Source: Dioscorea cayenensis subsp. rotundata (Eukaryota; Streptophyta; Magnoliopsida; Dioscoreales; Dioscoreaceae). From it: 64,000 nucleotides of DNA. Position 1 is the first letter of the stretch. The number at the start of each line of letters is the position of its first letter. The notes under the pieces are model-generated. The model worked only from the letters and a program-made list of their open reading frames with translations, was not told the DNA's origin and searched no databases. The stretch covers positions 19,808,345-19,872,344 of the forward strand of contig NC_052482.1 in NCBI RefSeq assembly GCF_009730915.1, read 5' to 3'. This document shows, piece after piece, positions 1,842 to 45,154 of the stretch. Made by a program: the position numbers and the translations under genes.

Positions 1842-1937
1842 ATGATTAAATTATATTTATATAGTTTAATATTTAAATGAGCATAAATCTTTCTTGCATA
1901 TTAAGATAAAATAAGGGCATCCAAATTAACAACTACC

Positions 1938-2213
1938 AGTGGGCTACCAATGGTTCTCTTAATTAACAACAATTATATTTAATTAACAACAATTAAAAAT
2001 ATAGTTTGAAAGTACATTTTGTTTTTTTTTTAATGAAAGCTACTTAATTTATTAATACAAAAATTACATTTTTATTTAATATATTTATTTTAATAAAATA
2101 GTTAGACCGGATGTTAATTTAGTAACCTAGTTTAAAAAATAAACTCAACAAATTGTTTTAGTTAAATTTTAGTTTGGATAGTTAGTGCTGTTAACTATAT
2201 CTCAAGGCACTCC

Positions 2214-2251
<38 letters not shown>

Positions 2252-2893
2252 AAGAGTTCTGTGAATGACTTGAAGAATACAAGAAGCAAGAAGCAAGAAG
2301 CGAAATCAAGAGACGTTGGGCTGGAGAGATCCTAATGGCGCCACGTTGGAATGAAGTGGAGGACGAACGATTGCTAAGGAAGAGAGCTTGGGGCCTCACC
2401 TTGGCTGAGATGAACGTATAATCGGTAGGAGTGCAGACGCATGCAGATGCAGATATGGGAGGATCCCATTAAGGAGGGCAACTATTCCCAGTTGCACTTA
2501 TGACCAAAATAAATTTACGGAGAATCAATCTGCAACAAGTCAAATATCCCAATCAGATGTTGTTAATGTAGAAGAAAGAACAGATGGTAAGGATAATTTG
2601 CGTCACATCATCATCATCATCATACATGTTTCTTGACAGGTTGTGCATCTGCAAACTGAAGGGCGTTATGAAGAATATTAAGCCAGGATGCTTTGAAGTT
2701 CTTTTAATTTTAGATTTGTTGTATTAAACATTTTAGAAAATGTAGGGTTCTTTGATGTTCTGCCACTATTAGAACATTTGCATTGGTGTTTGTGAAGACT
2801 ACTATGCCTCTTTGTGATTTCCTGTTCTAGCACTCACAGAACAGTTGTATTTGAAGAGCGCATGCTTTTTTTCATCTTTAATTGAGACAAAAA
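1938..2893 (+). repeat. Left arm of a ~950-bp long inverted repeat
   Basis: This segment is repeated in reverse complement at 15890-16835. The match runs from 'gtgggctaccaatggttctc' on the outside, through an AT run near 2220 and a conserved block around 2330-2420, to 'ctttaattgag' on the inside. The two copies are mostly identical by eye, with small indels. The arm contains a short frame (ATG at 2335, stop at 2419) for a peptide beginning MAPRWNEVEDERLL, which resembles the start of a Myb/SANT-like protein. The inner edge abuts a CACTA terminus at 2894. It could be one long terminal inverted repeat of a Mutator-like element, or one of two inverted copies of a smaller element. No target-site duplication was seen at the outer edges. 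Confidence 0.75.
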
Positions 2894-3260
2894 CACTACA
2901 AGAAAAATCCCAAATCGGCACGGTGATATCGGCACGGAAATGAGTTTAAAAACCGTGCCAAATTGATTTTGGCACCGTATTTGGCACCAAAAATTAACTA
3001 TGCCTATAGAATGGTCACAAATAAATTTTGGCACCGTCCTTTTATACCGTGCCAAATTTTGGCACTGTTTTTGGCACCTTTTCTTTACTATTGTGCCAAA
3101 TATTAACATTGATATTTGGCACGGACTTTGGTTCCATATTTGGCATAGTTTTGGCACGGTTTTATAGGTTCAGTATTTGGTACGGTTTTTTGGCACGATT
3201 TTATATATTATATTTTTTCACAATAATTGGCACAGTTTTTGGGAAAAAAAATTGTCACGG
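2894..3260 (+). mobile_element. CACTA transposon left terminus with 'ggcac' subterminal repeats
   Basis: The segment begins CACTACAAGAAAAATCCC, a CACTA terminus. It is followed by a dense array of short motifs containing 'ttggcac', 'ggcacggt' and 'gtgccaaa' in both orientations to about 3260, the usual subterminal repeat array of plant CACTA elements. The matching right end is uncertain. The nearest inward-facing CACTA end (15496) shares only the first seven bases and different subterminal motifs, so the two may belong to different elements. Confidence 0.7.
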
Positions 3261-3449
3261 CTTTTGGCACGCTTTTATTTATTTTATAAAAAATAATTTT
3301 TATTTAAATTTTCTTGAATTACACCCATCAAATTTTTTTTAATTGCTAAACAAAAATTATTTTATTGAATTAACAATACATACCATTCCTTTAATCAACT
3401 TCTTCAACATCTTCTGACTAACAGTAAATGAATTAATAATCAACCATAC

Positions 3450-3899
3450 TTGATCTTTCTCTAATAATGTGTTCCATTCCTTTTGTGCCACCAATGACCT
3501 TGTAGACTCTTCAGGCAATGAAATTCTATAATTCAAATCACCAAGCGAGACTACCCTACTGCATAAATAACAAACAAACAAGCAAAATGTTAATTAATTT
3601 CATATATGGTCCATACTTAATTGTTCTATAAAATGGAAACTAAAAGGCAAGTGGTGCAATTTATACTTTAATAAGACTTTTAGCGGTTCCAACTTGCAAA
3701 TAACTTAATGATTTTTATAAATAAATTATATTAATGAGTCACCATCTCCGTTGAGATCAGTACTCACTCATGATCAAGTATTTTCTTTGGTTGATCAAGA
3801 AAAGGTCCTCTTGCAAAACCAGTCCTTGAGAAGATCTCCACAAACGATCCCGAATTCTGAGCATTTTCATCTCCTTCTTTTCCTCTAAGCAATCCATAT
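3450..3899 (-). pseudogene. Captured two-exon fragment of an inositol polyphosphate 5-phosphatase gene
   Basis: Two minus-strand exon pieces match the plant inositol polyphosphate 5-phosphatase (5PTase) catalytic domain, which hydrolyses the 5-phosphate of inositol phosphates and phosphoinositides. The first (about 3899-3768) reads GKEGDEN...FLDQPKKILDHD and corresponds to the family's 'SGEKEGDE' segment. It ends at a GTGAGT donor. The second (3558-3450) begins RVVSLGDLNYRISLPEE, the family's 'GDLNYRI' motif, and ends at a GTATGG donor. Joining them keeps the frame and restores the Asp codon across the intron. The catalytic ends of the domain are absent, so this is a fragment. It sits just inside a CACTA terminus, as expected for a transposon-captured (transduplicated) gene piece. 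Confidence 0.7.
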
Positions 3900-4025
3900 A
3901 TCTAAATTCTTGACAATAATGTTAAGCAAAAATTAGAGGACTAGCAGCTCAGACAATGACATGGACCAACAATATAGTTTCGTTAATGGTTTTTTCAACT
4001 GAAATATTTAATTTTTAGTGATAAG

Positions 4026-5257
4026 AAGGCTAATTTATTAAAATATTGTTTTTTTTTTAATTATTTCTTTAAATGCGCATTTCCGTAATTATTTACTGAA
4101 AATGCATTTTATATTTTTATTATTTTTTTAAACAGATCGGTCCCACTCTAATTTTTCTAATATTTAAATTTAATTTTTTAAAAAAACAGAGGGGCCCGTT
4201 ATTTTTTTAATATTAAGTTTTTATTTTTTTAAGAACTGCGGGTCCCGATAGTTTTTAAATTAAAAACATTTTACATTCAAACCCTTATAATTTTCATTAA
4301 TTTTTCTTATAACTTATTTTTTCTCACTTCTACTATGTTATTTTTACTTCCACTAATTATAACCGGCTGTTAATAATTTAAATAAATAATTTTAATATTT
4401 TTTCATCATAAGGGGGTTGTTGGGATGAAAGTCAACTAGTTAACACGGATGAAAGCAAAAAAAACATACCTGAGTCCATTGATCAAAATTGAGTAACTAG
4501 CAACCGTAGTGGAAACTTATTCTTTCGTCAAGAGTTCCTACTGGCCTTGGTCGGTGTTCCTCTCGACCAAGGTTGTCTCCTTCGTTCAGTATAACAAGAA
4601 TATGAATTTTGCTAGATTTAATGTAAAAAAATAAAATAACATTGCAAGAAAATAAAAAAACTACAATGACAAAAATTTTAAAGAAGAGCTTCTCTATATT
4701 GATAATTTTTTCTTATAGAAATACTTTGTGTGTTTTTAGAAAAAGAATTTGGAGAGTTTATATACGCCTCCACCTAACAAATGGATGACTAAGATTAATT
4801 TCATCCAATGGCTCTCATGAATGTGGTAGGTACTAATTACACCAATAATTCATCCCAACAACCCCTTATGATGAAAAATATTAAAAATTATTTATTTAAA
4901 TTATTAACATTACGGTTATAATTAGTGGAAGTAAAAAAATAACATAGTAGAAGTGAGAAAAATAAGTTATAAGAAAAAATTAATGAAAATTATAAGGGTT
5001 TGAATGTAAAAATGTTTTTTAATTTAAAAACTATCTGGGACCCGCAGTTCTTAAAAAATAAAAAACTTAATATTAAAAATAACGGGCCCCTCTGCTTTTT
5101 AAAAAAATTAAATTTAAATATTAAAAATTAGAGTGGGACCCGAGTGCTTTAAAAAAATAATAAAAATATAAAATGCGATTTCGTAGAATAATTACGGAAA
5201 TGCGCATTTAAGGAAAATAATTAAAAAACAATATTTTTAATAAATTAGCCTATCAAT
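4026..5257. mobile_element. Foldback element with ~400-bp inverted arms
   Basis: Positions 4026-4430 are repeated in reverse complement at 4849-5257. The arms begin 'ggctaatttatt' outside and end with 'ttgttgggatga' inside, and they include the shared block 'ggcccgtt' and 'tgcgggtcccg'. The arms flank about 420 bp of unique AT-rich sequence with no convincing frame. Long arms and a G/C-type outer end fit a non-autonomous Mutator-like foldback element. No clean 9-bp target duplication was found, possibly because the outer edges have drifted. Confidence 0.7.
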
Positions 5258-5543
5258 GTTGAATGATTAATTTAATAAATCACTATATTTTGATATAACA
5301 AATAGAAAAAAACAATTAGTTATACATAAAAAAATAAGTAATTAAAATGTTTTGGACTCACACTGAGGTGGATGATAAAACTTAAGTTCCTTCCATTCAT
5401 TAAAGTCCTCCTAGTTTTTGCATTCTTAAAGCGTGTCTTCATTCCCTACTTTGAAGCAAAAGTTTAGGATAGGAGTCAACTAGAGAGATGGCTTCCAAAT
5501 TATGCCAGTTTCGCGTGAAATGCTTGAAATCATCTACTTCTAA

Positions 5544-6074
5544 ATGTTGAAAAAAAGATGTCCAAAATGCGAGGCAACTTATCGAGGTTAGCAAATAATA
5601 TCAATGACCTCAATCATTTGAACTTGTTCTCAGAAATACGAAATATGAATACAAATACGAAAAACTCTCTTAGTGTCAATGTGCTTATAATTTTGCAGTA
5701 ACACAAGGTCTTACACAGTGAACACAGTGCTTTGGAACACAATTCAACTTCTATTTCCTGATGAAATCAAGGCAAGAACAAAGTGCATCAATACATCATC
5801 ACCTAAAACAAGCCTGGAAAGACTAACAAGGACCACCATTAGCCAAGCTCCGAGAGCAATAGCAAGAGATGATAATAATGGCAGTAATCGACGAAGAAGA
5901 GCAATGCCGAGCCAATCGGAGGATGCAGCATTGGCCTTGAGGTTACAAAGAGAAGAATTTATGGAAGCATTCAGAGAGAATGACAATGAACAACAACAAC
6001 AGCTTAGAAATGCATCTGTGTACACTGCTAGAAACAATTTGAGAGCAATGACGTTACATGGACAACCTATTTAA
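5544..6074 (+). pseudogene. Captured 3' fragment of a RING-type E3 ubiquitin ligase gene
   Basis: The first exon piece (to 5586) encodes KKRCPKCEATYR, the last CPxC pair of a RING finger, and ends at a GTTAGC donor. The second (5719-6074, after a CAG acceptor) encodes VNTVLWNTIQLLFPDEIKAR and then a basic stretch. After that comes EDAALALRLQREEFMEAFR, which resembles a ubiquitin-interacting motif, and the frame stops at 6074. The order of RING end, 'NTVLWNTIQLLFP' helix and UIM-like tail is that of a plant RING E3 family. The splice junction is in frame. The N-terminal part, including most of the RING, is missing, so this is a fragment, probably carried by the surrounding transposon. Confidence 0.65.
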
Positions 6075-7935
6075 GAGAATTCAGAACTTGATAAAAGACA
6101 TGCCGTCACACTCAAAATGCAAATGCCATTTTTTTTATAAATTATAAAATAAATTAGAAACTCAATCCCAACCATTAAACCGTAGGCTTCTTCAGTACAT
6201 TAATCAATCAGTCATGAGGCACATTCAAATCTCTTAATTAATATTAATAATAATTATGTTTGCTACAATTATTGTTTTCCTTGTTATTAATACTACTATT
6301 CTTGCTACGATTATTGTTTACCTTGTTATTTGATGCTCATACATTCTTGTGGCAATCATGTTGTAGATAGATGCTCATATATTTGCTTGGAAACTCCACC
6401 ACTTAAATTATTATTATGCAAGCATAAAACAAAAATTTGGGCCTTGTGTTGGACCAGGTATGCACTCCCAAGACTTACCTTTATATAATTTTGTGGGTCT
6501 CTATGCCTAGTACACCACATCAGGACAAACTTTTGACTTTTTGACCCAGTAAGCCCTCTAAATTTAAACTGGTTTAGTCAATTCAATCCACAAAATAAAA
6601 CTACATCAATTTGTCACTTCAATGGTTTCTCAGAAATTTCTCTAAAGCTAACTACCCCAGTTTGCTAATTGAACAGTTGAGTAGTTGAACTTTCACTATT
6701 TCTTTTGAATAAAGCTCATGCATGTGAACTCACATAGTCAACCTCACATGTTTGGTTTTGATGGTTGTTCATGCAGTTTGATTTACAATTGAGAATAGTC
6801 AATAAAGAGAAGAGAATATCATAAGGAGCATTGACAACCAAATGAGAGGGAACAAACATTAATATGGCATTTCTAATTTAATCTTATCAGAATGAATAAT
6901 TAACATCTTGAAGTTCACGTTTGATTTTTTTGTGAAAAAAAGATGAACTATCATACGAGTGGTGGAGATAGTTCCACATCAACTCCCGGGGAGCTATGGA
7001 AAACTCAAGACTTCCGGGGAGCTATGGAAAACTTCAAGGCTTTTTCCTCCTCATCAACTCCCACAACATATAGAAACCAAAAATTTACACAAATGAATAT
7101 ACTTCATACCAAAACAAGGAAAGGAAATGGTTTGGCAACTTAAACATGATCAAGGAAATCGAGTAGCATTTGAATGCATATGCACTAATAGTGAAAAAAA
7201 GAATATAATGCCTTTATGAGAATTGTGCATAAGTATAGCAAAGGAAAGGAATGATACAAGTAAATAAATAAATAATACCTCATGTATTCTTACGAAGTGA
7301 CAATTGAGGAAATGATAAAAGTATTGGAACATAATCATCTCTTTGCCATTGTAGGATCGGAAGAATTGTCATAAAACCAATATCACGATATCCAAATGAT
7401 TGTCCACCTATAACTGAAGAAGACATAACAATGTTACGTCATATGATTTTATCCTATTTAAGCATACAAGATGATTTCGTTCTCGGAGTTTAAGCATACA
7501 TTACTTTTTAAGGTAGGCACAAATGCACCATCCAATCATCTGCATCATTTCACTTTGCTTTCCTATCCAAGACCCCACGCAAGCACACGAATCCTTGATA
7601 CATAATGTCTAAAAGGATTTCTAACACTAACAATATAAATTAATATATAAATAAACATGCATATAAAAAATGGAATGAATTGGTAATTAGAGAACATACC
7701 AAGCCCTTATAGTCATGTGCACAAGGGAAAGTTTTGCAACCTGGAAAACAGAAAATCATGCTAAAAGAAAATTCATGACCTTTACCTCAAACAAAAAATT
7801 TTGAAAACATTAGAATGAATTGTTGCTGAATAAACTGAAGTGAACTTGAATAGTTGCTTCATCTTCCTTATCATCCAGTTGAAGAGATACTAACTTCTAC
7901 ACCAACAACTTTAAGAAGACAAAACTCAAAGTAAA
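6075..7935. other. Transposon-interior spacer, no gene recognised
   Basis: This is AT-rich sequence between the captured RING fragment and the TNP1-like gene. A 66-codon plus-strand frame at 6943-7143 contains a short direct repeat ('ggggagctatggaaaact' twice) but matches no family I know. No terminal repeats or RNA genes were seen. Confidence 0.4.
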
Positions 7936-9836
7936 CTATATATCCTCTTCTTCATCATTTGGGCCATCAAGAGTGTTGTTGGGGACGAGTGTGGTGCGAG
8001 GTCTCTTTCTCGTCGGAGAGTGCTCATCAACATGCGATTGTGCCTCCACTGTTGGTGCTCTAGGGATAGATCTTGTGAGAGTAGCGACATGCATATCAGA
8101 GAGGTCAATGCCCTTAACCCTAAGTGCTGCAAGCAGTGACATTTCAAATGACTCGCGACGAGTCCACTCAATCCGCATCGCATCATGTTCGGCTCGCATC
8201 TTATCATGCTCGGCAAGCATTGCATTATGCTCGGCTTGGGTTTTTGCTAGCTCTGCCTGCAACTCATTAATTTGGGCATATAGTTGCCCACTTGAATGAG
8301 AAGGCCCTGAACGTGGCTTGTAATTAATTGAAGACATTTGCCTAACTATATTGCCCTTTCCCAACACTCTATTACGACTTCCAACAGCAATGCGGTCCCA
8401 CAATTCATTTTGGTTGATAGAATTCTCATCTTCTCCTTGATCACGCTTATCTGCAATGGCTTTATCAAATTGTTCCTGCATCCATCAAAAATTAGATCCA
8501 ATTAATAAACAATAATATATAAATGTCTAAAGTATCCTATAAAGGAATATATATATATACACATTTAATAAAGTAAATAAATTTATTCATTGAAACTATT
8601 ACTTGGAAATAAATTGATGAAACTATTACTAGAAAGACAATAATTTATTCAAATAAATTAACTTCTTAAGGCAATTATAGTATACTTACAACAATTTGTG
8701 TAGCACGCTCACCCTCGAGAGTGTCATCCTTCTTCCCGTGAGTGCGAATGAAACATTCTTTCGGTGTTCCCTACCCAATTCTTCAATCTAAAATAAGAGC
8801 ATAATAAAAAATTTAAAGAATTAAATAAATCATAAATAATAATAATTATTATTATTAAATAGAATATGGCCATTACAAGCCTGAGGCGGTGCAGCGATGC
8901 TTGACGAGATCCACCACGATAAATAACAAACGAAGAAGCTCCATTTACTGCCCTATTCTTTTTGTTTTGCTCACTTATTTTCTTGAACTCTTCCGACCCC
9001 CAATATTTCTGCAAACTTTCCCAAACTGAAGGGGTCATCCACTCAAGAGGAGCCTTGTAAAGTGTACGTGCAAAGTACAAATGCTTTTTCAACCATTCAC
9101 TCGCCTCATGATTGAAATGACATAATATCATAGACTCATGTCTGCGACTCCCATGTGTAAATACCCTAAAGAAAGAAAGATTAACTACATTAATATATTT
9201 TTAATAGTAAAGCAATATATTTAATTAAATAATATTTACCCTAAAAAGTCTGTGAACATTCTCCGTCAGTACATCTCTAGGCACTTTTTCCCCATCCAGT
9301 CCATGCTTCTTTGTAGTGGCCTTGGACCAAATCATGTATTGCTCTTTTAACTTCGTAATCTCTGAAAAAAGTGAAATTAATACATTTTAATTATAAAATT
9401 TAGGAATTTTCTTAAGGAATTTATATATATAATTGTCAAATGTTTAGAAAATAAAATTTACTTACATAACTACACTATCAGGAGTAATAAGCCATGGGAG
9501 TCCAGTGCTATTAGATTCATTGGGTTGATCCTCTGTTGCCTCATGTTGCTCCTCAGAGGCATGGGTAGATGCCTCGGCATGTGGAGTTAGTGGAGGCTGT
9601 GAAGCTGAAGGAGATTGTGTAGTCGATGGGCTCACTTCTGGTGCCTGAATATTTGGATGTATACATGGAGGCATTCCCAATTCTGGTGAGGTATTGGAGA
9701 CTAATTTCGAGCTAACAGACTTCTGACGAATACTTGAGGTGGATCGACCTCGGCCTGATACAGATCGACCACCATGTCTCAATGTCGATCGACCCCGACC
9801 TATAAGTTGTAAAACATGGAAACAAATTTCACTCAA
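7936..9836 (-). pseudogene. TNP1-like (Ptta/En/Spm, Transposase_24 type) CACTA gene, probably decayed
   Basis: Five coding blocks on the minus strand fit plant CACTA TNP1-type proteins. Block 1 (about 9799-9466) is Gly/Arg/Ser-rich then Pro/Ser-rich (RGRSTLRHGGRSVSGRGRST). Block 2 (9361-9240) encodes KEQYMIWSKATTKKHGLDG. Block 3 (9165-8877) encodes the conserved 'WLKKHLYFARTLYKAPLEW' region. Block 4 (8770-8690) encodes GTPKECFIRTHGKKD. Block 5 (8475-7936) is a charged coiled coil with EHxxMxAEHD repeats, ending at the stop. Junctions 3-4 and 4-5 have good splice sites and keep frame. Junctions 1-2 and 2-3 do not with the best sites, so the gene is probably inactive. TNP1 proteins bind the subterminal repeats and assist TNP2, which is not seen here. 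An ATG at 9836 could start block 1, or an upstream exon is missing. Confidence 0.75.
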
Positions 9837-9991
9837 ATTAAAGGATACATGAAAAGCAAGGATGTTTCATGCGATAAATATATTATACAAATAATTCCTC
9901 CTCAGGTTATACTTGTGAGCATTCAACATTCAGCATTCACCTACCATTCAGGTTAAGGACAAGATAGGCCAGGAAATTGCACCATCATGGT

Positions 9992-10821
9992 GTTGTGAAG
10001 ACCTGATAACTGATAATCACTATATAGATAGTTTAGACCTATAAGATCAAGTTTCTTATAGACAGCAACTTGAAAAACTCAAACACTTGATCAGGAAAAT
10101 TCACACAAGCTCAAGAAACCAGGAAAACAGTGAAACAGAAGTCAATGTTACAAAAATAATGATAACAGATTGTATATAACTCTGATTCTTCTCAAACTCA
10201 ATACACAAGGAGTTAAGATCAAGAACAACAACTTTATTATATAAAGTTTGAATGAAAACTCACTCAGTTAAGCATGAAAATTCATACATCAAGAAGCTTT
10301 CTTAAAAAAACATGAAACATTCTTATATGAGAACACACAATATATCTTTGTAAAAGTTTAGTGACTAAAATGAAATGAACCAGCTTAGTCACACCACACG
10401 CGTCATATTCTCCTCAGCTGCACCGCTTGACCTGTTTCCATGCCTCGAACTTAATACAAATCCCTTGATCAACAAATCTCAGCCATTCAGAACAAACACA
10501 ATCCAAGTCTCTTCTAATGCCTCGAACTTAAACCCTTGTCTTGATGGATGAAATCTTGACCACACGATCACTGGTCTAACCCTGTTGCTGAGATTGTTTT
10601 CCCAGCCTCAACCTATGTATTCTCTTGATCTTCAAATCCTGACCATCAATCACACTCCCTCTGATTCTTCAACTAACTTAACAAACTTTCAAACACAGGA
10701 AATGACTGACATACCCTATACTTCTTAACAATTGACACCAGGACAACTGAGCTGCTGCTTCATTGCTTCTTCTCTGCAATTGACTTCTGAAATTCACTTG
10801 ATCTTCAATCAATTCCAACAA
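9992..10821 (-). mobile_element. Possible solo LTR of a Copia-like element
   Basis: Read on the minus strand, the segment starts near 'tgttggaattgattgaa', carries an AATAAA-type signal in the 'tatataataaag' region near 10240, and ends in 'cttcacaaca'. This resembles a Copia LTR of about 830 bp. No target-site duplication, primer site or internal region was found, so this is a tentative fossil. It may have split the CACTA element's upstream region. Confidence 0.3.
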
Positions 10822-11639
10822 TAACAGGCACACGCCAAGTAACACTGCATGTTTCGTTGAGACGAGCAACTTGAACCATCACCTGATAGGCCTTCTACAA
10901 AATTTGGTTAAAAAAAAGTTTCAGTTTACAGCAAAGTCAAACAATGTATTTTCATCAACCTGAGTTAAGTTCAATAGAAAATTAAATCCAACATAATTTT
11001 CAATCAGAATTGAACTCAGGAAATAGTCGAAATTCTCACCCTGTAAACCATTTAATTTAACTATTTCAATGCATACTGATGATGTTTGGTTATGGTTGTG
11101 TCCTCCAATAATTCAATATCAATGAAATTAGTAATTATGAATCAGTCTCTCATCCTCATGCAATCAGTTAGACCTCCCAGTGCAATAACAAATTGGTTTT
11201 TTTTTTCTTTTTCAAATATAGGTTAAATTTTCTTTATACTAATCTTGCTACAACATATTTAGTCTAAGTAAACGCATGAAAAAAAAAGTTATCAGTTAGT
11301 TTCACAAAATTATAATAATCACTATGAAACTTAATTTGACATGTTAAATACTACAAAAATGCCCCAGGAATAGAATCAACCCAAAGCACTGCCTTACATC
11401 ACAGATCCTTTAAACTAAACTAGTAGACTAAGAATTTGCAAACTACTAAAGGAATTCTACTTTCTTTAGCATGTTGCTAAAGTGAGCAGGAATGTTAGAA
11501 ATTAAAGAAATCGAAAAACAAAAAGAAAGCAACAGAAGGCAATCAACATGTAAGATGCTAGTTGCTTGAACTAAATTATCAGCCATTGTAAATTTGTAAA
11601 TTTCAACAATACTGTAGATGATGGATTTATAACACCAAC
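10822..11639. other. AT-rich spacer, nothing recognised
   Basis: No conserved frame, terminal repeat or RNA gene was recognised between the LTR-like segment and the LINE ORF1 fragment. Confidence 0.4.
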
Positions 11640-12632
11640 GGGTCTTTGTAGTCGTCCTTTACGAGCGTTTGCCCACGTTTTGCTATTCTTGTGGGGTAGT
11701 TGGGCATGGGTCCAACGCGTGCTCTCGTTCCCCAGCAACCAGGAACCCCAGACTTTCTCCACCCTCTTGTGTCCCACAAGGGTTGGCGGTCAGGTCTGAG
11801 CGGCCTCCAGCGGCTGCTGGAAATGAAGCAGGTTTTGTTGACCCATCCCTCCCACCTCCAGACTCAGGCCCCAAATCAGACCCTCCTCCTCAGAAGGTGG
11901 AACAGGACTTCGGCCCGTGGTTGGTTGTTTCTCGCCGGCGTGGTCGACCCCGCGACCGTGGAGGCAGTGCACTCACTGATACCACATCCCAGGAGGTGGC
12001 AACCGCCTCGAGGGACGACGACAGGGCGGTCCGCGGCTCTACTGGTCATAGCATATGTGGCGGTCTGCGAGGGGGTTCCAGTGGGTGGCCCCTCGTATCC
12101 TACGTCACTCTTCCCACTTCTGACCCCATTGACTTGACGGCCCCACCTCATGTTCCTGTTCACTTTGATCCACCCGTCACACTGCCCAGTGTACCTAGGG
12201 ACCCTGCGTCCTCCCTTCCCAATGTGCCTCGGAAATTACCACCTATCACTGACACGCTTTTCCACTCCTCACCCACCACTCCCACAGAGACTTCTACACT
12301 CAACACTCCACAGCCTCCCAGACCCCCATCTCCTTGGGATTGACCATTTGAATCAACGGTCACGATCTCCACCACCAATATTTATCTCCTCCGCCACTCA
12401 AAACCCCATTTCCTCTTCAGGAAACCCTAATCTCTCTCATTCTCTGGTTGTCGATCAAGTCTCTGCTGCCTTGGATGATGGTTCCATGGACGAAGATAGT
12501 GACCAGGAGGATGAAGCTTCTGATGACTCAGAAGAGCTTATGTCTGACGATGTTGAGTCTGACGACATGATGACATTAGACCAGTTCCAGGAGGGAGCCC
12601 AGTGTTCAAATAGAATTTGTAAGAAGAATTAA
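11640..12632 (+). mobile_element. LINE ORF1 (gag-like) C-terminal fragment
   Basis: The plus strand encodes YSCGVVGHGSNAC, a CCHC zinc knuckle (CX2CX4HX4C). It is followed by FGPWLVVSRRRGR, the pair of motifs typical of plant L1-type LINE ORF1 proteins. A Pro/Ser/Thr-rich stretch follows to the stop at 12343. A second frame (to 12632) continues with an acidic tail (DEDSDQEDEASDD) and the 'MTLDQFQ' motif also seen in these proteins. The frame change shows the copy is inactive. The N-terminal RNA-binding domain and ORF2 are absent. The base composition is much more GC-rich than the surroundings. The fragment lies inside the CACTA/inverted-repeat region and was either inserted there or captured. 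Confidence 0.7.
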
Positions 12633-12639
12633 TTTTTTA

Positions 12640-14470
12640 CCATGAGCAACCTAATTATCACAAGAAAATAAAGCGTATCAAAAATAAATTTCAATTCTTT
12701 CTGAGACCTTTGTCGTTGTTCAATCTGTTTTCAACTTGACTTTCCATAAATAAATCAATAACGCTAAATATAATATATCTTGGACAAATTATCAAGCTTT
12801 GATCACATCACATTTATATACATATCCAGTTAGACAACACCGAACTAACATCATATTTCTGTAGTTTACACCCTATGATATGTTTCTCGGATGATTATTT
12901 CGGGGGTGGCTAATATTCAAACAATTGCAAAGCTTCCAACAACTTCATTGTTAGTCTATATTTTCAAACCTTGACTAGGCAAACCTTTATTCCACACTAG
13001 TATTGATTGCCAAAACAATTTTCTACACAGTAAAAAAGGAGAATAGTCCAAAAAGTTTTTAAACAAATGCACTGATAGTTTCACATAAAATGGACAGATT
13101 TTTAAAGAATGATCTGTAAAATAAAATCATAATGTCCATTTCAACATTGAGAAAAAGAAAACATCTGCCCCATTGTGAGTAGCACAAATAGCATAAACAC
13201 ACGGATGCAACAATCAAATACTAAACTAATTAGTGACAAAAAATCTAAACCACAAATGCTACTACTACGGGGAGAAAACAGAGCATTCTAGAGGATCTTG
13301 TACTCCATGAATTTCTCTCACATAAAAGAACGAGATAAAACATAAAGTACAAAATATAATAGCCTACTTATCATTTTATTTTGGCAACTGATCCTCATTT
13401 CATTCTATTCCTGTTCCAATTTTCAAACTTTCACTGGTAATTCTTCTTTGACGGCCAGATGTGGTCCAAAATATAATTCAAGCAGTACCTGTTCATGCTT
13501 TATAATGTCAATGGTCTAGCACTAAATTAGCTCTTTTTCCTTTTGGCTAAGTAATGGTAAAGCCACTTATTAGACAGAAAATGAGGGCCTTGATGTGTCA
13601 CTTGCAACTCTTTAGTCTATGTGTAGCTTCTTCTTTGCATAAACTCAGAATGCACAAAATCACATAAAATTACCCTTTTCTTTTGACTTTGCTAGAGAAC
13701 AACAACATCAATAACTTTGGAAAAGATACATTGACCTTAAACAACTAAAATATTATATTTAAACAGCAATTCTCTGACTAGTTCTTAAAATTATTTCTTA
13801 ATAATCTGACACAAAATCTTGCAGAAATTTCCTAGACCAGAAAATCACAGACTGATAAAATAGCTCTAAAATAAAGAAAAACACCATTTGGGAATTTAGC
13901 TGTTGATTATGCACTTCCAAATATACAAATCAGAATATGAAATAACTTACTTTTCCACAATAACTAAACAATTAAGCGAGATGCTCTTCAGTGACCTGAA
14001 ATTCAGTGATCAAGAGATTCAGATCAGCAAAACACCCAAAGGATTGAGCTCTTATCAATTACAAGCAATATGATCAAGAGAAATTTGATGGACAGAAATG
14101 ACAAAAAAAAAAACTACAAAAGAATTACGAAAGAGAGAACTCATATTTCTTATTCAATAGTCTCACATGCTGATCAATGTCAGATACATATATAGTCCTC
14201 CTAATACTCTCCTCCTTCTGAGCTCTCTGAGCTCTCTCTCTCTCATCCTCCTCCTCGCTTGATTATACTCATTACTCCTCTGCAAAAGTCCAGATCAAAA
14301 TTTCAATACGCCAACAATAAAATTCCAAATAAATCACAATCCTTTGACCTGAAAAAGAAAAACCTTCAACATAAAATTCCAAATTAATATAAAAAACTAA
14401 ATCTTTGACTTAGAATTGACACAAAAAAAAAACATCAAATCACAATTCCAAACACACAGGAAATAAAAAG
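12640..14470. other. AT-rich spacer, nothing recognised
   Basis: This is long AT-rich sequence with no convincing frame on either strand and no terminal repeats. It may be intronic or filler sequence of the large composite element. Confidence 0.4.
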
Positions 14471-14479
14471 ATGAGAGTT

Positions 14480-14827
14480 TTACTCGACGTTGCTGTTGAT
14501 TATTCTGATTACCAGAAGACCAATCGCTGCTAGCCTGCTAGAATCCTTTATACTACCATCACTGCCGCTACCACCATTACCGTAATACTCCGCCAACGAA
14601 ACGAAGACAGGAGCGTCAGCCGACAGCCGGTGACTGCCGGCCTGCCGCCCATCTGCTGCTAAGACACCAGCACGCGACGATGGCACAAACTCCTTCGCCG
14701 ATTGATTCAACTTAGACAGTGAGTGAACCAACTTCTTCACAACACTCTAAAACTCTTGATCCCGTCTGGCGCCGGTGCCGGAAAGCTGATCAACGGACCT
14801 GATCACACACTCCGCAACCACGGCCAT
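14480..14827 (-). pseudogene. Captured fragment of a PAM2 (CID8-13 type) PABP-interacting protein gene
   Basis: From an ATG at 14827 the minus strand encodes MAVVAECVIRSVDQLSG, then KKLVHSLSKLNQSAKEFVPS. The last part is a PAM2 motif (SKLNxxAxEFVP), which binds the MLLE domain of poly(A)-binding protein. The start 'MAVVAE' and the helix before PAM2 also match the plant CID8-13 RNA-binding protein family. A TAG stop interrupts the frame between the start and the PAM2 motif. After about 110 codons the frame leaves the family, and the RRM domains are missing. This is a truncated captured copy, in the same orientation as the neighbouring TPR fragment and the TNP1-like gene. Confidence 0.55.
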
Positions 14828-14949
14828 TCCCTAGAAAAAGATCCGTAGAAAAAAAAAAGAATCCAACCATCGAAAAACAAATTCATACTATTAAACCCCT
14901 ATCTCATATCAAAACCAAAATAATCACAACAAAAAAGAGGAGGGGAAGG

Positions 14950-15190
14950 TCCTTGCCGTCAGGTTCCAGAGCAATGAGGCGTTCGATGATGGCGATAGCG
15001 TCGGGGAGTATATCGGTTTCCCTTTGAGCTCAAGTAGAGATTAGAGCGCCTTAATGCTGTCTGGATCAGAGGTGAGGTGGTCTTCGAGAGTGCAAACTTT
15101 CTCATCATCGGTGAGGGATTCTGGGAGGGTCTCGGACTGAGAGATGGGGCTGCGGCGAGGGCTGGCTTGAGAGGGCGAGAGCAACTGCTG
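14950..15190 (-). pseudogene. Captured fragment of a SLOW GREEN 1-like chloroplast TPR gene
   Basis: The minus strand encodes LTDDEKVCTLEDHLTSDPDS and a leucine-rich 'SLLELK' stretch. After a frame change comes DAIAIIERLIALEPDGKD. This is the first TPR-like helix pair of plant SLOW GREEN 1-type proteins (chloroplast TPR proteins needed for thylakoid development). An in-frame stop and at least one frame change show that it is not functional. Upstream (15190-15290) is a Ser/Pro-rich stretch that could be the remains of a transit peptide. The assignment rests on a short match. Confidence 0.45.
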
Positions 15191-15399
15191 CGGCAGTGGA
15201 GGGGATGAGGGTTCTCAGAGAGTTGTCATGGACTGAGGGTGACCCGGAGAGGGTTTGGGGAGGCGGGCATGAAGAGGAGAAGGCGGACGAACTATAAAGG
15301 GAGAGAGAGAGAGAGAGAGAGGGGGGGAGAGGAGGGGGATTAATTATTTTTAAAATAACATTAACGAAGAGGGGTTTAACTAAACCTGTTCTTAAAACA

Positions 15400-15496
15400 T
15401 GAAAAAAATATTCTATTTTCTTATAGAGGTGGTTCTTTAGAACCCCTCTGTTTAACTGCCGTCTGTCTACCTCTAAAGCTCAAAAATAGTGTAGTG
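15400..15496 (-). mobile_element. CACTA-like terminus facing left
   Basis: Read on the minus strand from 15496 the sequence is CACTACACTATTTTTGAGC, followed by subterminal 'agaggtggttct' and 'aggggttct' motifs to about 15400. It is the likely 5' end of the element that carries the minus-strand TNP1-like gene and the captured fragments at 14.5-15.2 kb. It shares only CACTACA with the terminus at 2894, and the flanking triplets differ, so pairing of the two is not established. Confidence 0.5.
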
Positions 15497-15540
15497 TGTA
15501 TCTCAATCTCTAGATATATGGAGAAGTAAAACAAGTGAAC

Positions 15541-15730
15541 TGAAAGAGAGAGGAGGAGGAGCTCAAGAACTCAGAACCAGAAATGCAAAAGATAACCCTA
15601 GTTGTGGAGGAGGAGGATATCAAGAACTAGGGACCAGAAATAAGAATGATCATCTTGGAAGACGAGAAGGAGGACCTCAACAATTAGGAGCCGGTGATGG
15701 AAATGATAATCTCAGAGAAGGATTAAGATG
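15541..15730 (+). repeat. Three imperfect ~63-bp tandem repeats in an open frame
   Basis: The motif 'ggaggaggagctcaagaact' and its variants recur about every 63 bp (near 15550, 15613 and 15675). In one plus-strand frame they read as GGxQELGTRNxND-type units, three times, before a stop near 15730. It lies between the CACTA end and the right inverted arm and has no counterpart at the left arm. No protein family was recognised. Confidence 0.6.
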
Positions 15731-15889
15731 ATCATGGAGAATAATTATGACTTTGATACGACACTGAATGCTGCTTTTCTTTAGTGCTTTTAAATTGAGA
15801 TGGAGTTCTTTGACTTAGAAGAGTGCATCGATATGGCTTTGACCTTTTTTCAATTAATGGCTGTCTTAATCCATTGAATATTCAAGAAT

Positions 15890-16835
15890 TTGTGGTTCTT
15901 TTTTTCTCAATTAAAGATGAAAAAAAAAAGCATGCGCTCTTCAAATAGAACTGTTCTGAACAAGAAATCACAAAGAGGCCATATAGTCTTCATAAACACC
16001 AATACAAATGTTCTAAAAGTGGCAGAACATCAAAGAACCATAGGTTTTCTAAAATGTTTAATATAACAAATCTAGAAGTAAAAGAACTTCAAAGGATCCT
16101 GGCTTAATATTCTTCATAACATCCTTCAATTTGAAAATGCACAACCCGTCAAGAAACATGTATGATGATGAGGATGATGATGATAATGATGATGATGAGG
16201 ATGATGTGACACAAATTATCCTTACCATCGGTTCTTTCTTCTACATTAACATCTGATTGGGATATTTGACTTGTTGCAGATTGATTCTTCGTAGCTTTAT
16301 TTTGGTCATAAGTGCGACTGGGAATAGTGGCCCTCCTTGATGTGATCCTGACATATCTGCACCTGCATGCGTCTGCACTCCTACTGCTGATACGTTCACT
16401 GATCTCAGCCCCAGGTGAGGCCCCTAGCTCTCTTCCTCAACAACCGTTCGTCCTCCACTTCATTCCAACATGGCGCCATTAGGATCTCTCCAGCCGAACG
16501 TCTCTTGATTTCGCTTCTTGCTTCTTGAGTTCTTCTTCAACTCATTTACAGAACTCTTATTATAATATATATATATAGTGATGGAGTGCCTTAAGATATA
16601 ATTAACAGCACTAACTTTCCTAACTAAAATTTAACTAAAACAATTTGTTGTGTCCATTTTTTTAAACTAGGTAACTAACTTAATGTCCAGTATAACTATT
16701 TTATTAAAATAAATATATTTAAAAAAATTAATTTTTATATTAATAAATTAAGCAATTTTCATTAAAAAACCAAAATGTAATTTCAAATTATATTTTTAAT
16801 TGTTGTTGATTAAGAGAACCATTGATAGCCCAGTG
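15890..16835 (-). repeat. Right arm of the ~950-bp long inverted repeat
   Basis: This is the reverse complement of 1938-2893. Small differences include a longer 'gat' triplet run near 16166-16205 and a shorter AT run near 16565. The MAP..WNEVEDERLL frame is present on the minus strand but shifted later. The match extends inward to about 15890, beyond which the right side has sequence with no left counterpart. Confidence 0.75.
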
Positions 16836-17045
16836 ATATTCATTAGAATCACGCACGATTGGGCAAAGAAATGATTGTAAGCAGTCTATGGCCTCGGAAC
16901 TATGCAACACTATGCAAACATTTTATAATATTTGTAGAAATATTGTACAATACCCAGTCCATTCATTATTCACAACATCTTTTATGGGTAGAATTGAATT
17001 CTCCATCTCTCTTTGATTACCTAGAAGGCTAGAAGTTAGAATTTA

Positions 17046-21946: not shown

Positions 21947-22512
21947 AATTGTCATTAAGGAAAATTTATTAGCTGAATGAGATCTTGACTTAAAATTGAC
22001 TTAGTCAAGCGACTATCAAGAAAAAATTAATTTTCTTCTTATTATTGATTGATCATAAGAAAGATCAATATTAGTATTCCATAACTCCAACTCCAAGAGA
22101 GTTTAAAATAAGATTTACATCTTTGTATTACTTAATTAGTCCATCACTTCAGAACTCCAATATGAACTTTGGTCACAGTTATTATTACCATAGGAGCAAG
22201 AAAGCAGCACAAACAGACGTTGTGAATCTGATACGAACTCTACATCTCCCTCGAATGATGAAATATATATTGAAATACAAATGAAAATTGAGGGTCCAGT
22301 TGTGGGTGGCTTGTCACATTGTAAAATGAGCATTTAACAAATGATGAAATATTTAAAAATTTAGGTATTTTCATGCATATCATTAAAAAAATGTATTGTT
22401 ACAAAAATCACATGGTATATCTTAACAAATATTTAAAAATAAAAATTATTTTTTGAGAGCTCAACTTAAAAGAATTTTTTATGAGATACTCTGCGAAAAT
22501 GGGGTGTTACAA

Positions 22513-24304
22513 ATTGTTAGGTTGACAATGCAGTGTAGACTGACTAATAGTTCGGACTGACTCATATGACTGATTTATTTTTCACAATATAATTCAGTCT
22601 TACTCAAAGTAACTTGGTTTTGGGCAACTTATATAGTTTTGGTTTTATCGAATCAATTAAATTCTCTTGTTTCATTCTCTTATTTCTATTTATTTTATTT
22701 TAACCGCTTTAACTAACACGCTATATACCATTTACTAATATATCGTTTCTCAATCATTTAAAATTAAAAAATATTTTGAGGTTTGAATTTTATAACTAAT
22801 TTAATATAGATAAATTTATTATAATTTATCTTAAATGAAACTAAAATATTCAAAATTAAATTAAGAGATGAAAAACAAAGAAAGAGGAGATGAAAGAAAA
22901 GAACACATACTAAAGGTTTCCTATTCAACTATACCATCTTTATATATTTATATATATTTCTTTTAAAACCCCTAAAACTATCAATTAGCGCATACAATCC
23001 TCACTTCCAAGTCATGAGATTCTCTTGGCCGTTAGTGTGTTCAAATTATTCAATTTCCTAAGTTATATAAATAAAGAAAGTAATATTTATAATTAAAAAT
23101 ACATGATTTTTAATTATTAAGGTGACAATGCGATTGTGAGCGACTCATATGCTGATTTATTTTTCACAATATAATTCAGTCTTACTCAAAGTAACTTGGT
23201 TTTAGGCAACTTATATAGTTTTGGCTTTATCGAATCAATTAAATTCTCTTGTTTCATTCTCTTATTTCTATTTATTTTATTTTAACCGCTTTAACTAACA
23301 CGCTATATACCATTTACTAATATACCGTTTCTCAATCATTTAAAATTAAAAAATATTTTGAGGTTTGAATTTTATAACTAATTTAATATAGATAAATTTA
23401 TTATAATTTATCTTAAATGAAACTAAAATATTCAAAATTAAATTAAGAGATGAAAAACAAAGAAAGAGGAGATGAAAAAAAAGAACACATACTAAAGCTT
23501 TCCTATTCAACTATACCATCTTTATATATTTATATATATTTCTTTTAAAACCCCTAAAACTATCAATTAGCGCATACAATCCTCACTTCCAAGTCATGAG
23601 ATTCTCTTGGCCGTTAGTGTGTTCAAATTATTCAATTTCCTAAGTTACATAAATGAAGAAAATAATATTTATAGTTCCAAAAAAAAATACATGATTTTAA
23701 TTATTAGGCTGACAATGCAGTGTAGACTGACTAATAGTTCAAACTGACTCATATGACTGATTTATTTTTCACAATATAATTCAGTCTTACTCAAAGTAAC
23801 TTGGTTTTGGGCAACTTATATAGTTTTAGTTTTATCGAATCAATTAAATTCTCTTGTTTCATTCTCTTATTTCTATTTATTTTATTTTAACCGCTTTAAC
23901 TAACACGCTATATACCATTTACTAATATACCGTTTCTCAATCATTTAAAATTAAAAAATATTTTGAGGTTTGAATTTTATAACTAATTTAATATAGATAA
24001 ATTTATTATAATTTATCTTAAATGAAACTAAAATATTCAAAATTAAATTAAGAGATGAAAAACAAAGAAAGAGGAGATGAAAGAAAAGAACACATACTAA
24101 AGCTTTCCTATTGAACTATACCATCTTTATATATTTATATATATTTCTTTTAAAAACCCTAAAACTATCAATTAGTGCATACAATCCTCACTTCCAAGTC
24201 ATGAGATTCTCTTGGCCGTTAGTGTGTTCAAATTATTCAATTTCCTAAATTATATAAATGAAGAAAGTAATATTTATAGTCCCAAAAAAAAATACAGGAT
24301 TTTA
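22513..24304. repeat. Three tandem copies of a ~600-bp AT-rich repeat
   Basis: The landmark 'gatttatttttcacaatata' occurs at 22572, 23154 and 23759, giving spacings of 582 and 605 bp. Almost everything between matches from copy to copy, including 'taaccgctttaactaacacg' and 'gattctcttggccgttagtg'. Copy 2 lacks about 20 bp near its start ('tagactgactaatagttc'). The high similarity points to recent tandem duplication. No coding frame or known element was recognised in the unit. Confidence 0.85.
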
Positions 24305-24396
24305 AGAGAAAAATAGTTTAATTTGGTTGTTTTTTATGTTAAAATTTAGATAATTTAATGTTATCTTTAATCATTGTACAACATCCTTAAACAATA

Positions 24397-36689: not shown

Positions 36690-38650
36690 AGAAATGAATA
36701 AATCATAAATTTATTAAAAACTAAACACAACATACAAGCACAATACAAATAGATTGAAAAGAACAACAACAAAAACTCTCACCAGAGATGACACACAAGT
36801 GTTTCTAGAAACATAACAAGGAGAAAAAACAACGAGAAGATAAAGCAGCTCTGTAGACAAAAGCTACCAACAGGAGACACAGGTCAACAAAGCTGAGAGT
36901 GAAGAACTCTACTCCAGATCAGCTAGATTAGGATCTAATTCGCCAGAATTGTTGGATATCCTAGCATTGATGAAATTGATTGAGCGTTTGATTTTCTGAG
37001 TAGCCTCCGCAAAAGACTATTGTTGATTAACATCGGCTGCTGAAAACCATGAGAGTAGCATTAAAGAGTGAGTAGGTAATGCAGAAAATTGAAAAATGCG
37101 ATTATTACGCTCATGCCAAATATTTCAAATAATAGCAATAATGCAGAGATCCCAAAGGGGTTGGCTTTGAGGTTGGATGGAAGTAATCCAAGTGGTCCAA
37201 ATCTTCGAAAAAAAAGAAGGGGTGGAGTGTATTTCCAAAAGTTGTGTGAAGAAGGACCGGATACGTGTAGTGTATAAGTAGTCGATGAATAGATGATCTA
37301 ACAATCTCAGAAGCCCTATGGTAAAGCACGCAAGTATCAGTTGTATTTATTAAGTTACAGTTTTTTTTGAAGAGGTTTGTAAGAGTAAGAATTTTATCTT
37401 CCCAAGTAAGCCAACATAATAAGGTGATTTTTGTTGGGCATCTAATTTTCCAAAACTGCTTATAAAGTGGACAGCGAATTCTTCCATCGATAAGAAACTT
37501 GTAAAAAGATTTACCGAGAAGGTTCCACTTTTATTCAAAGGGCAAGTGTAAAAGTCTTCTAGTCCACTTGAACAATCAGGGATCATTTCCAAAAGAGAAG
37601 ATAATGCTTCTGTGTTATAGTTGATAAAGTGATTTTTAGGGAGTTAATTTGTTCGGAAAACTGACGAACAGTGATCCAAGGAAGATACAGTCATTAAATA
37701 GAAGAGGCCAATGGTCTTTCAGAGATATCCCCGAATACCATCTATCATACCAAAAATAGGTATTGGCCCCATTTTTAACTGTTTTTGGGACGCATGAGCG
37801 ATAAGAATTCAGGGAAGAAAGTACCCCTGCCCAGAAAAAGGATTTATTTATTGGAGATGTTTGAAAAAGAGGGCATGCAGGGTTTCTGGAGAAGTAGTTA
37901 TTATAACTTTAATAATTTTAACCCAATAGCCGTTAGGATTAGTATTAATTTTCCACCACCATTTTCCAAGAAAAGCACAATTGAAATCCTGGAGACTAAG
38001 AATTCCGCAACCACCCATGTTCTGTGGTCTGCAAATTATTTTCCAGGCAACCAGCCTGATGCCTTTGGGACCCAAATCAGATTCTTTCCAAAGGAAGTCC
38101 CTACGAATCTTGTCAATTTCTTTAATCACCCAAGCATGAAGTTTAAACACTGACATCCAATAGATTGGAACAGTCGAACGAACAGAGTTGAGAAGAGTTA
38201 ATAGACCACCAAGAGAGAGATAAATGGCTTTTCAAGGCGATAGTCTAGCACGAATAGTTTCAATGAGATGAAACCAGTCATGTCTTTTTGGTCGTTGACC
38301 AGATAAAGGGACCCCCAAATAGGTAAGCGGAAGACAGTCTCTAGAACAGTTAAGAATCATAGCATATGTGAAGTGGGGTTGGAAGTCATAATCACTGGAG
38401 TATAAACAGTTTTTTGAGTAATTAATGGTAAGTCCAGAAGATCCTTCAAAAAGATAAAGAATTAACTTAATGATGTTAAGATCCTCCTGTCCTCCAGCAG
38501 AGAATATGATCAGATCATCCGTATATTGAAAGTGGCAGATGCTATCTGAATGGTCTAGGGGCACACCCACTAGGATTTTGGATCTAAGGGCATTAGTAAA
38601 CATAGCACTTAGAACATCACCAGCTAAAGCAAAGAGAAGAGGGACATGGG
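36690..38650 (-). mobile_element. 5'-truncated LINE with reverse transcriptase and zf-RVT remains
   Basis: On the minus strand the copy begins (about 38650) inside the reverse transcriptase domain, with FALAGDVLSAMFTNAL and then FQYTDDLIIFSAG (the catalytic F-x-DD box, YTDD here) and LPLTYLGVPLSGQRPKRHDW. Next come IRRDFLWKESDLGPKGIRLV and an NMGGCGI segment (38156-37848). After these are zf-RVT-like remains (37592-37111) and an 'IWHERNNRIFQF' motif near 37105. It ends at the common tail near 36690. The reading frame is broken in several places. Truncation at the 5' side is typical of LINE insertion. Plant L1-type. Confidence 0.85.
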
Positions 38651-38855
38651 GTGTCTTCTTTCTTTAAGATGAAGAATAAAACTCCTCATTTGGTAATCAA
38701 GATTTATAATTACAGATAACAATATTCTTGCAATTACCCAAAAAGAGGAAAATTAACCGGTCATAATTACATGCCATATAATTCGGGATCATTTATGGAA
38801 AATAAATTAAGACGTGCATTAACAGGTCATTACTGCTAATTATCTCCTTACCTCT

Positions 38856-38861
38856 TATAAA
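38856..38861 (+). promoter_or_regulatory. TATA box of the first GH9 gene
   Basis: TATAAA about 84 bp before the ATG, inside a block ('cctcttata') also present before the second copy (TATAAG at 45065-45070). The shared upstream sequence reaches back to about 38800 and 45000. Confidence 0.5.
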
Positions 38862-38944
38862 TATATATATACAACCTTTCCCCCCAGGGTCTCTCACACC
38901 ACAGTGAAAAAGTGACAACAAACTCCATTGATTCACCACCATCC

Positions 38945-40678
38945 ATGGCTCTTCCAAACCTCCTTCTCCTCCTCTGCTTTCACTGCTTCTTTCTCTTCTT
39001 CATCCAAAGCCATTCTTCAATAGATTACTCTCAAGCTCTCACCAAATCCTTGCTCTTCTTTGAGGGCCAAAGGTCAGGGAAACTCCCTTCTTCTCAAAGA
39101 ATCCAATGGCGTGGTGATTCTGCTCTCAAAGATGGCAGTGATAATGGGGTAATTAATTAATTAATCACCATTTGTTTATATAATAAATATATATATGTAA
39201 GTCTTTAAGTATTATTTTGTTGATATGTAGGTTAATCTCACCGGAGGATATTATGATGCCGGAGACAACGTGAAGTTTGGATTTCCACTTGCATTTACTA
39301 TGACAACACTTGCATGGGGGATCATTGAATTTGAGCAAAACTTAGTTTCCAAGAATGAGTTTGATCATGCCCAAGAAGCATTGAGATGGGGGTGTGATTA
39401 TCTTCTTAACGCTCACGTTGCTCCAGACGTGCTTTATGTGGAAGTCGGAGATGGATTTTCCGATCATGAGTGTTGGATGAGACCAGAGGACATGACAACT
39501 CCAAGAACTTCTTACAGCGTCGATGCTGCACATCCCGGCTCCGATGTCGCCGGAGAAACCTCAGCCGCCTTTGCCGCTGCTTCCATTGCCTTTAGAAAGT
39601 CTGATCCTCATTATGCTGATGTGCTTCTTGACCATGCAAAACAAGTAATCACTTCAACTTGCATTTTCTTTTTTTTTTATTTATATGTTTCATTATTATT
39701 AATATATGCATGCCTGATTATTATGTATTAGTTGTTTCAATTCGCTAATGATTACCCGGGGAGTTATCAAGACAGTGTTACGGCGGCCACAAAGTTCTAC
39801 GCCAGCAGTGGATTTGAGGATGAATATCAATGGGCTGCCGTCTGGCTCTTCCATGCAACCGACGATCAAACATACAGTGATTACCTTGCCAACAAGGGCA
39901 GCACCAGCACCGGTGGTGTTCGGTCTCTTTTCTCTTGGGATGATAAATGGGTCGGTGTTCAAACCATCATCTCTAAAGTAAGTACGAAAATTCAATTATA
40001 AGATGAGAGATCCAAGCTTATACATAAAGTCACATATCTAATAATAATGATAATTTAATAATGAAACAGTTAAAGATCGAACAAAGACTCGATGACAACC
40101 AAAATCCTTTATGGGACAAGTATGAGTCGGAAATGGTTCAATTTATATGTCCGACGATACAAAGAGGGAACAACAATGTGCAGATGAGTCCGGGTGGGAT
40201 GTTGTGGTGGCAGCCATGGAACAACTTCCAGTACACAGCGGCGGCGATGTTAGTGATTGCGGCTCATGCGGACCACCTTAACTCGGTGGGAGCCAACTTA
40301 CAGTGTGACTCGGTCACTGTCACGCCCGGAGAGCTAATTGAGTTTGTTCAATCACAGGTGGACTACATCTTGGGTGTGAACCCAAAGGGGATGAGTTACA
40401 TGGTTGGGTTTGGGTCAACGTATCCGGTTAAGTTCCATCATAGAGGAGCGTCGATGCCTTCGATCAAGTCGGACCCGGCTCTAATTGGGTGCAAGGATGG
40501 GTTCGAGAAGTACTTTTATAGTGATGGACCGAACCCGAATGTATTAGATGGTGCGGTCGTGGGTGGACCTGATGCGAACGATCAATTTGAAGATCAACGG
40601 TATAATTTTCAGCAGTCAGAGGGACCAACTGTTAATAATGGGCCACTAGTTGGGGTGCTAGCTAGACTTGCATCTTAG
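38945..40678 (+). CDS. GH9 endo-1,4-beta-glucanase (subclass B cellulase), copy 1
   Basis: Four exons (38945-39148, 39231-39644, 39732-39977, 40070-40678) join in frame to 490 residues. A signal peptide ([19 protein letters not shown]) indicates secretion to the cell wall. GH9 hallmarks are [25 protein letters not shown] (DAGD carries the catalytic Asp), [44 protein letters not shown] and [10 protein letters not shown] (catalytic-site His). The last is [13 protein letters not shown], followed by QQSEG with the acid Glu. There is no transmembrane anchor and no C-terminal CBM49, so it is subclass B. These enzymes hydrolyse amorphous beta-1,4-glucan during growth, abscission or organ separation. 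It is paired with a close tandem copy 4.5 kb downstream. Length is normal. Confidence 0.96.
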
Positions 40679-41174
40679 ATTTGGTCCAATTGGTATTTAT
40701 TTTAGGTTTTTAATAATTAAAAGTTGGGGGCTAAATATTTCGAAGTTGTATTAAGGATTTTCATTTTCCTATTCCTGTGAAAGAGATAATGAATTTTAAG
40801 TTTCAAAATTTCATATATTGTTTTTTTTTTACTTAACATTATTTATTCATGATATCAGTAAAATTGTATAACTAAAATTAATAAAACTTAAATATATAAA
40901 TAAAAAAAATGAAAAAGTACATAACAATATTGGTCTCTGTTGGTCTATATCACACAACTAATCATAATTTTAATTTGAAGATTGTTAATTTAAGTACTGC
41001 TTAGAGACATGAATTATTGCCAAACTGTCTGGTTCGTTAGGGTCACCATCATGTGTCCACTCTAACCCTAGTTAACTATTAATTCACCCCTCTCCAGATC
41101 TCTCCACGTGTCCACTTTCAATGGTCAAGATTCAATTACCCCTCATCTTCTCTCTTATTTCCTCGAAGTCCTAA

Positions 41175-45000: not shown

Positions 45001-45154
45001 TTAGGGAGCATTTATAGAAATAAATTAATACGTGCATTAACAGGCTAATTCTCTCTTTGCCTCTTATAAGTACAACCATGCATTCCCCCAAGACTCTCTC
45101 GCACCACAGTGAGAAAGTGAAAAGCAAACCCAAGCCATTCATTCACCAGCATCC

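What the first reader, a model, noticed from the sequence alone, without database searches (positions are those of the whole stretch)
1938..16835. 15-kb composite transposon that has collected parts of at least four host genes
A ~950-bp inverted repeat bounds a segment with inward-facing CACTA ends, a TNP1-like gene and pieces of a 5-phosphatase, a RING/UIM E3, a SLOW GREEN 1-like TPR protein and a PAM2 (CID-type) protein, plus a LINE ORF1 fragment. CACTA and Mutator-like (Pack-MULE) elements are known to capture gene pieces, but this many in one nested structure is notable. Which element did the capturing is unresolved: the two CACTA ends share only seven bases and no target duplication was found.
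Basis: partly seen in the sequence, partly recalled or inferred. Interest (0 to 1): 0.8.

Follow-up and report, generated by a model that had tools for sequence, protein, structure and literature searches.

The report
Nested transposon wreckage with gene fragments
A 15-kb stretch of plant DNA is a pile-up of decayed mobile elements holding broken pieces of host genes; this is an ordinary kind of plant transposon mosaic, and the idea that it is one single composite transposon is not supported.

Summary
The window is plant nuclear DNA. The inverted repeat is real: 1934-2893 against 16838-15899, 92% identical, K2P 0.08. The left CACTA end at 2894 is real too: 13 of the window's 18 TTGGCAC copies lie in its first 427 bp, against at most 2 in 100 simulations. 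The right "CACTA end" at 15496 has no support beyond a common 7-mer; TTGGCAC does not occur there. No target duplication was found for the arms, and the 3-bp flanks of the two CACTA motifs differ.

Supported pieces: a 5-phosphatase fragment with an intron in place, a PAM2/CID-type first exon, a Transposase_24 (TNP1-type) remnant, a LINE-type zinc knuckle. RING/UIM and SLOW GREEN 1 got no tool support.

Best reading: a nested mosaic of several elements, not one mobile unit. Multi-gene capture by one CACTA element is already in print (soybean Tgm-Express1: five host genes in 5.7 kb). New member of a known kind. Copies and empty sites could not be sought; no genome is held.

The parts
1934..2893 (+). 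left arm of the outer inverted repeat; carries a decayed Myb-like exon starting at 2335
   Evidence: Myb match made on the right-arm copy
15899..16838 (-). right arm of the outer inverted repeat; Myb-like exon reads leftward from 16479, with a frame break different from that of the left arm
2894..3293 (+). CACTA terminus (CACTACAAGAAAAATCCC) and TTGGCAC subterminal repeat cluster; abuts the inner edge of the left arm exactly
3450..3900 (-). fragment of an inositol-polyphosphate 5-phosphatase-type gene: two partial exons with a 209-bp GT-AG intron (3767-3559); outer limits approximate
4027..5251 (.). second, less diverged inverted-repeat element (arms 4027-4429 and 4849-5251; K2P about 0.04), superfamily not determined
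5691..6074 (+).
7936..9866 (-). remnant of a CACTA accessory gene (Transposase_24, TNP1-type) in several pieces
11633..12632 (+). fragment with a zinc knuckle of LINE ORF1 type, GC-rich, in two overlapping open frames
14484..14827 (-). first exon of a PAM2 (CID-type) gene with an internal stop and a frame break; followed by a GT
14935..15290 (-).
15490..15496 (-). CACTACA 7-mer proposed as right CACTA end; not distinguishable from chance

Best explanation
A nested mosaic of several decayed elements, not one mobile unit. An inverted pair of about 950-bp segments, each holding the same piece of a Myb-like gene, arose once, most simply as the long terminal repeats of a Mutator-like element or as an inverted duplication. 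A CACTA element landed at or in the inner edge of the left copy, and its far end is no longer at this place. The space between holds pieces of host genes, mostly 5' or middle exons (5-phosphatase, CID-type, possibly others), a TNP1-type remnant, a LINE piece, and a small element with 403-bp inverted repeats that came later. Shown: the arms, the left CACTA end, the retained intron, the frame breaks, the lower divergence of the inner repeat. Inferred: the order of events, the Mutator-like nature of the arms, and capture by a transposon rather than some other ectopic duplication.
For: The two proposed CACTA ends have different subterminal sequence: 13 of 18 TTGGCAC copies at the left, none at the right; the other five lie beyond 20000. 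Folding z is -5.3 at the left and -0.9 at the right. Within 12 bp of the arm edges no 8-11 bp target duplication beats random site pairs: 46-85% of 500 random pairs did as well, depending on length. Divergence differs: K2P 0.081 for the outer arms, 0.041 for the inner repeat, same settings. Myb-like pieces in the arms diverge as much as the non-coding parts (20 of 251 in the ORF; 28 of 358 and 20 of 293 on either side). The 5-phosphatase piece keeps its intron. Pfam finds no further detectable exons of the parents in six frames of 1934-16900.
Against: The left CACTA end abuts the inner edge of the left arm to the base, and the gene pieces plus the TNP1 remnant lie between two inward-facing CACTACA motifs; one 12.6-kb CACTA element with worn ends would explain that with fewer events. 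CACTACA is somewhat commoner in the window than simulations give (10 against 5.3), so some of the ten may be real ends. No second copy or empty site could be examined.
Confidence: 0.6

Rival explanations
1. One large Pack-CACTA element, 2894-15496 (12.6 kb), with a TNP1-type gene and captured gene pieces, inserted between or inside an older inverted pair. Its two ends look unlike each other because it is a hybrid of two neighbouring CACTA elements, as proposed for Arabidopsis Pack-CACTAs.
For: Inward-facing CACTACA motifs, a Transposase_24 remnant inside, gene pieces with intron. Hybrid formation by complementary terminal deletions of neighbouring elements is described in a review (PMC13317346, passages seen). 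A CACTA end sharing 12 bases with the left one lies 1 kb outside, at 1840.
Against: The right motif is at chance level, there are no shared subterminal repeats, and the 3-bp flanks are AAA and TGT, not a duplication.
Confidence: 0.2
2. One large Pack-MULE, 1934-16838, with terminal repeats of about 950 bp, that captured all the gene pieces and was later invaded by CACTA, LINE and a small inverted-repeat element.
For: Long arms with clear outer limits; long terminal repeats and gene pieces are typical of Mutator-like elements (PMC3310237, abstract start and passages). Three rows of a tomato table seen there, the top of a longer table that was cut off, give 12.5, 27.3 and 30.8% of members with a target duplication, so its absence here is not fatal.
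Against: No target duplication, no Mutator transposase family among the Pfam matches of the region, and 14.9 kb would be very large (recalled, not tested).
Confidence: 0.15
3. Remains of genes that decayed where they stood.
For: Exons with introns lie in one region.
Against: Only single exons or pairs of exons of each parent were detected (Pfam, max E 1; exons without a known domain would be missed), and they are interleaved with transposon parts.
Confidence: 0.05

Closest known systems
Tgm-Express1 (soybean CACTA with five host gene fragments; PMC1947982, abstract and passages seen)
   Same: CACTA superfamily, several unrelated gene pieces, introns kept
   Different: Tgm-Express1 is one 5.7-kb element with inverted-repeat ends sitting in a gene; here the ends do not match and the capturing element is not identified
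Pack-CACTA and other Pack-TYPE elements (PMC8903248 and review PMC13317346, passages seen)
   Same: host exons from more than one locus near CACTA-like ends; two CACTA ends close to each other
   Different: no compatible pair of ends and no target duplication here
Pack-MULEs with long terminal repeats (PMC3310237, passages seen)
   Same: long inverted arms, gene pieces
   Different: no target duplication; a gene piece lies inside the arms themselves
Chenopodium CACTA elements with captured gene fragments (PMC8978399, passages seen)
   Same: Transposase_24 domain and captured gene fragments reported in CACTA-like elements
   Different: the passages describe elements with nearly complete 5' ends and fragments upstream of the coding sequence; here only one end is supported

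Membership tests
CACTA (En/Spm) element, as the unit 2894-15496 | terminal inverted repeats of about 10-28 bp beginning CACTA (lengths recalled) | tested here: not met
   only CACTACA (7 bp) is shared between the ends
CACTA (En/Spm) element, as the unit 2894-15496 | 3-bp target duplication (recalled) | tested here: not met
   AAA before 2894, TGT after 15496, read from the sequence
CACTA (En/Spm) element, as the unit 2894-15496 | subterminal repeats at both ends (recalled) | tested here: not met
   13 of 18 TTGGCAC copies at the left end, none at the right
CACTA terminus at 2894 alone | CACTA start followed by a subterminal repeat cluster | tested here: met
   cluster of 13 against at most 2 in 100 simulations; folding z -5.3
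CACTA-derived content | TNP-type protein domain | tested here: met
   Transposase_24, 1.6e-6 exactly at the curated cut-off; 2.1e-7 with exons joined; about 30 of 138 positions only
Mutator-like element, as the unit 1934-16838 | 8-11 bp target duplication (length recalled) | tested here: not met
   best matches no better than random site pairs
Mutator-like element, as the unit 1934-16838 | long terminal inverted repeats | tested here: met
   about 950 bp, 92% identical
Pack-TYPE element | multiple genomic copies and a parent gene elsewhere | not testable with these tools
   no genome is held; scans with two TNP1-type pieces and one arm pattern in viral contigs and prokaryote genomes found no relative

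The most novel reading that the evidence does not exclude
The outer arms are the ends of a transposon that captured a Myb-like gene piece inside its own terminal repeats, so that every copy carries the gene piece twice in inverted orientation. Read-through transcripts would then fold into a long hairpin and feed small RNAs against the parent Myb-like gene.
Probability: 0.1. Interest if true: 0.5.

Novelty: new member of a known kind. Interest (0 to 1): 0.25.

Why it matters
It is one more case of host exons stacked among plant DNA transposons. The only point beyond the usual is that the long inverted arms themselves carry a gene piece. That would matter for gene silencing if other copies exist and are transcribed.

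Tried and rejected
Single CACTA unit 2894-15496: rejected as main reading because the ends, subterminal repeats and flanks do not match. A right partner for the 2894 end: sought as CACTACA on either strand over the window; the only other end sharing CACTACAAGAAA is at 1840, facing the wrong way. A continuation of the left arm beyond the CACTA end, homologous to 15497-15898: no significant match in the window beyond that stretch's own internal repeat. Target duplications for the inner 403-bp repeat: none convincing; the best is 11 bp with 2 mismatches at the edge of the scan, which 5.8% of random pairs equal. Selection on the Myb-like piece: no sign, since it diverges like its surroundings. The right arm read with X at stops against the PDB gave only weak matches up to E 5 (best 0.01, a stretch of histidines). 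A Pfam identity for the 78-residue frame at 15495-15728: none. Relatives in other collections: one TNP1-type piece and one arm pattern in viral contigs and another TNP1-type piece in bacterial and archaeal genomes gave none, as expected for plant DNA.

Full report
Setting. The window is 64 kb (GC 34%) with genes of plant type further right: GH9, PC-Esterase and cation efflux families among the ORFs scanned. No genome is held for it, so copies and empty sites, which would be decisive, could not be sought. Three collection scans, with two TNP1-type pieces and one arm pattern, found no relative in viral contigs or in bacterial and archaeal genomes.

Outer inverted repeat. The arms are 1934-2893 and 16838-15899: 998 columns, 832 identical, 96 gap columns, 38 transitions and 32 transversions. 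No 8-11 bp target duplication within 12 bp of the edges exceeds what random pairs of sites give. With the frame break of the right copy bridged, it matches Myb_DNA-bind_6 at 2e-5 (25.1 bits, cut-off 22.9) and Myb_DNA-binding at 1.4e-4 (22.3 bits, below its cut-off of 24.4) and, weakly, Myb repeats of solved structures (best E 0.0058). Unbridged frames gave no Myb match. The two copies are broken at different bases. Divergence is even across the arm: 28 of 358, 20 of 251 and 20 of 293 compared positions, which speaks for one duplication followed by neutral decay.

CACTA ends. At 2894 the sequence CACTACAAGAAAAATCCC starts exactly where arm homology stops. TTGGCAC occurs 18 times in the window on both strands, 13 of them within the next 427 bp; the largest cluster of that width in 100 first-order simulations was 2. 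The stretch folds far better than shuffles (z -5.3, 0 of 100 as good). At 15496 only CACTACA is shared. The 7-mer occurs 10 times in the window, with 9.1 expected from base composition or 5.3 from simulation (4 of 100 simulations reached 10). None of the four left-end motifs tested (TTGGCAC, GGCACGG, GGCACCG, GGCACNGT) occurs in 15200-15496, and folding is ordinary (z -0.9, 40 of 200 shuffles as good). The three bases outside are AAA and TGT. I therefore accept the left end and not the right one. A third end, CACTACAAGAAATTAG, lies at 1840 facing left. It shares 12 bases with the 2894 end; that 12-mer occurs twice here and 3 times in all in 100 simulated windows.

Gene pieces. 5-phosphatase: Exo_endo_phos2, 2.9e-7 for one frame with X at stops; 2.2e-10 with a GT-AG intron of 209 bp left out; synaptojanin-1 in the PDB at 1.2e-5 unspliced and 1.6e-6 spliced. 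PAM2: 7.2e-4 in the long frame, just below the curated cut-off (19.5 against 20 bits); 9.5e-7, above it, in the reassembled exon. TNP1 type: Transposase_24 at the cut-off (28.7 bits) and 31.6 bits with exons joined, about 30 of 138 positions. LINE type: zf-CCHC_4, 1.8e-7. No support: RING/UIM. Not settled: SLOW GREEN 1, a name that rests on recall alone. All six frames of 1934-16900 were passed through Pfam in pieces (max E 1 or more), and no further exon of the 5-phosphatase or CID-type parent appeared; exons without a known domain would not show.

Inner repeat. 4027-4429 against 5251-4849, K2P 0.041 against 0.081 for the outer arms under the same settings, so probably younger; superfamily undetermined.

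Reading. Several unrelated elements are stacked, each incomplete. The capture of host exons is likely, since an intron is kept and only partial genes are seen, but the capturing element cannot be named. Precedents are close: Tgm-Express1 with five host gene fragments in 5.7 kb (PMC1947982, abstract and passages); [quoted passage not shown] captured fragments in Chenopodium CACTA-like elements (PMC8978399, passages); and a review of capture mechanisms (PMC13317346, passages). The number of pieces here is therefore not exceptional.

Noticed in passing
1400-1840: Another CACTA terminus (CACTACAAGAAATTAGTG, facing left) ends at 1840, 93 bp before the left arm begins, with GCCGCC/GGCGGT copies in its flank; the rest of that element runs toward the window start.
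   Followed up: partly
10140-10830: Stretch on the minus strand that looks by eye like a copia-type solo LTR (TG...CA); no target duplication seen by eye; no tool test.
   Followed up: no
15550-15709: Degenerate tandem repeat (46 bp at 74% identity) within a short plus-strand reading frame with no Pfam match.
   Followed up: partly
38774-40818 and 44993-47062: Direct duplicate at 86% identity around a GH9-type gene; the first copy's ORF matches Glyco_hydro_9, the second was not scanned but reads alike.
   Followed up: no
22512-24305: Direct repeats with a spacing of about 0.6 kb at 95-97% identity.
   Followed up: no
38235-38663: Reverse transcriptase remnant, RVT_1 1.8e-5, below the curated cut-off.
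   Followed up: no
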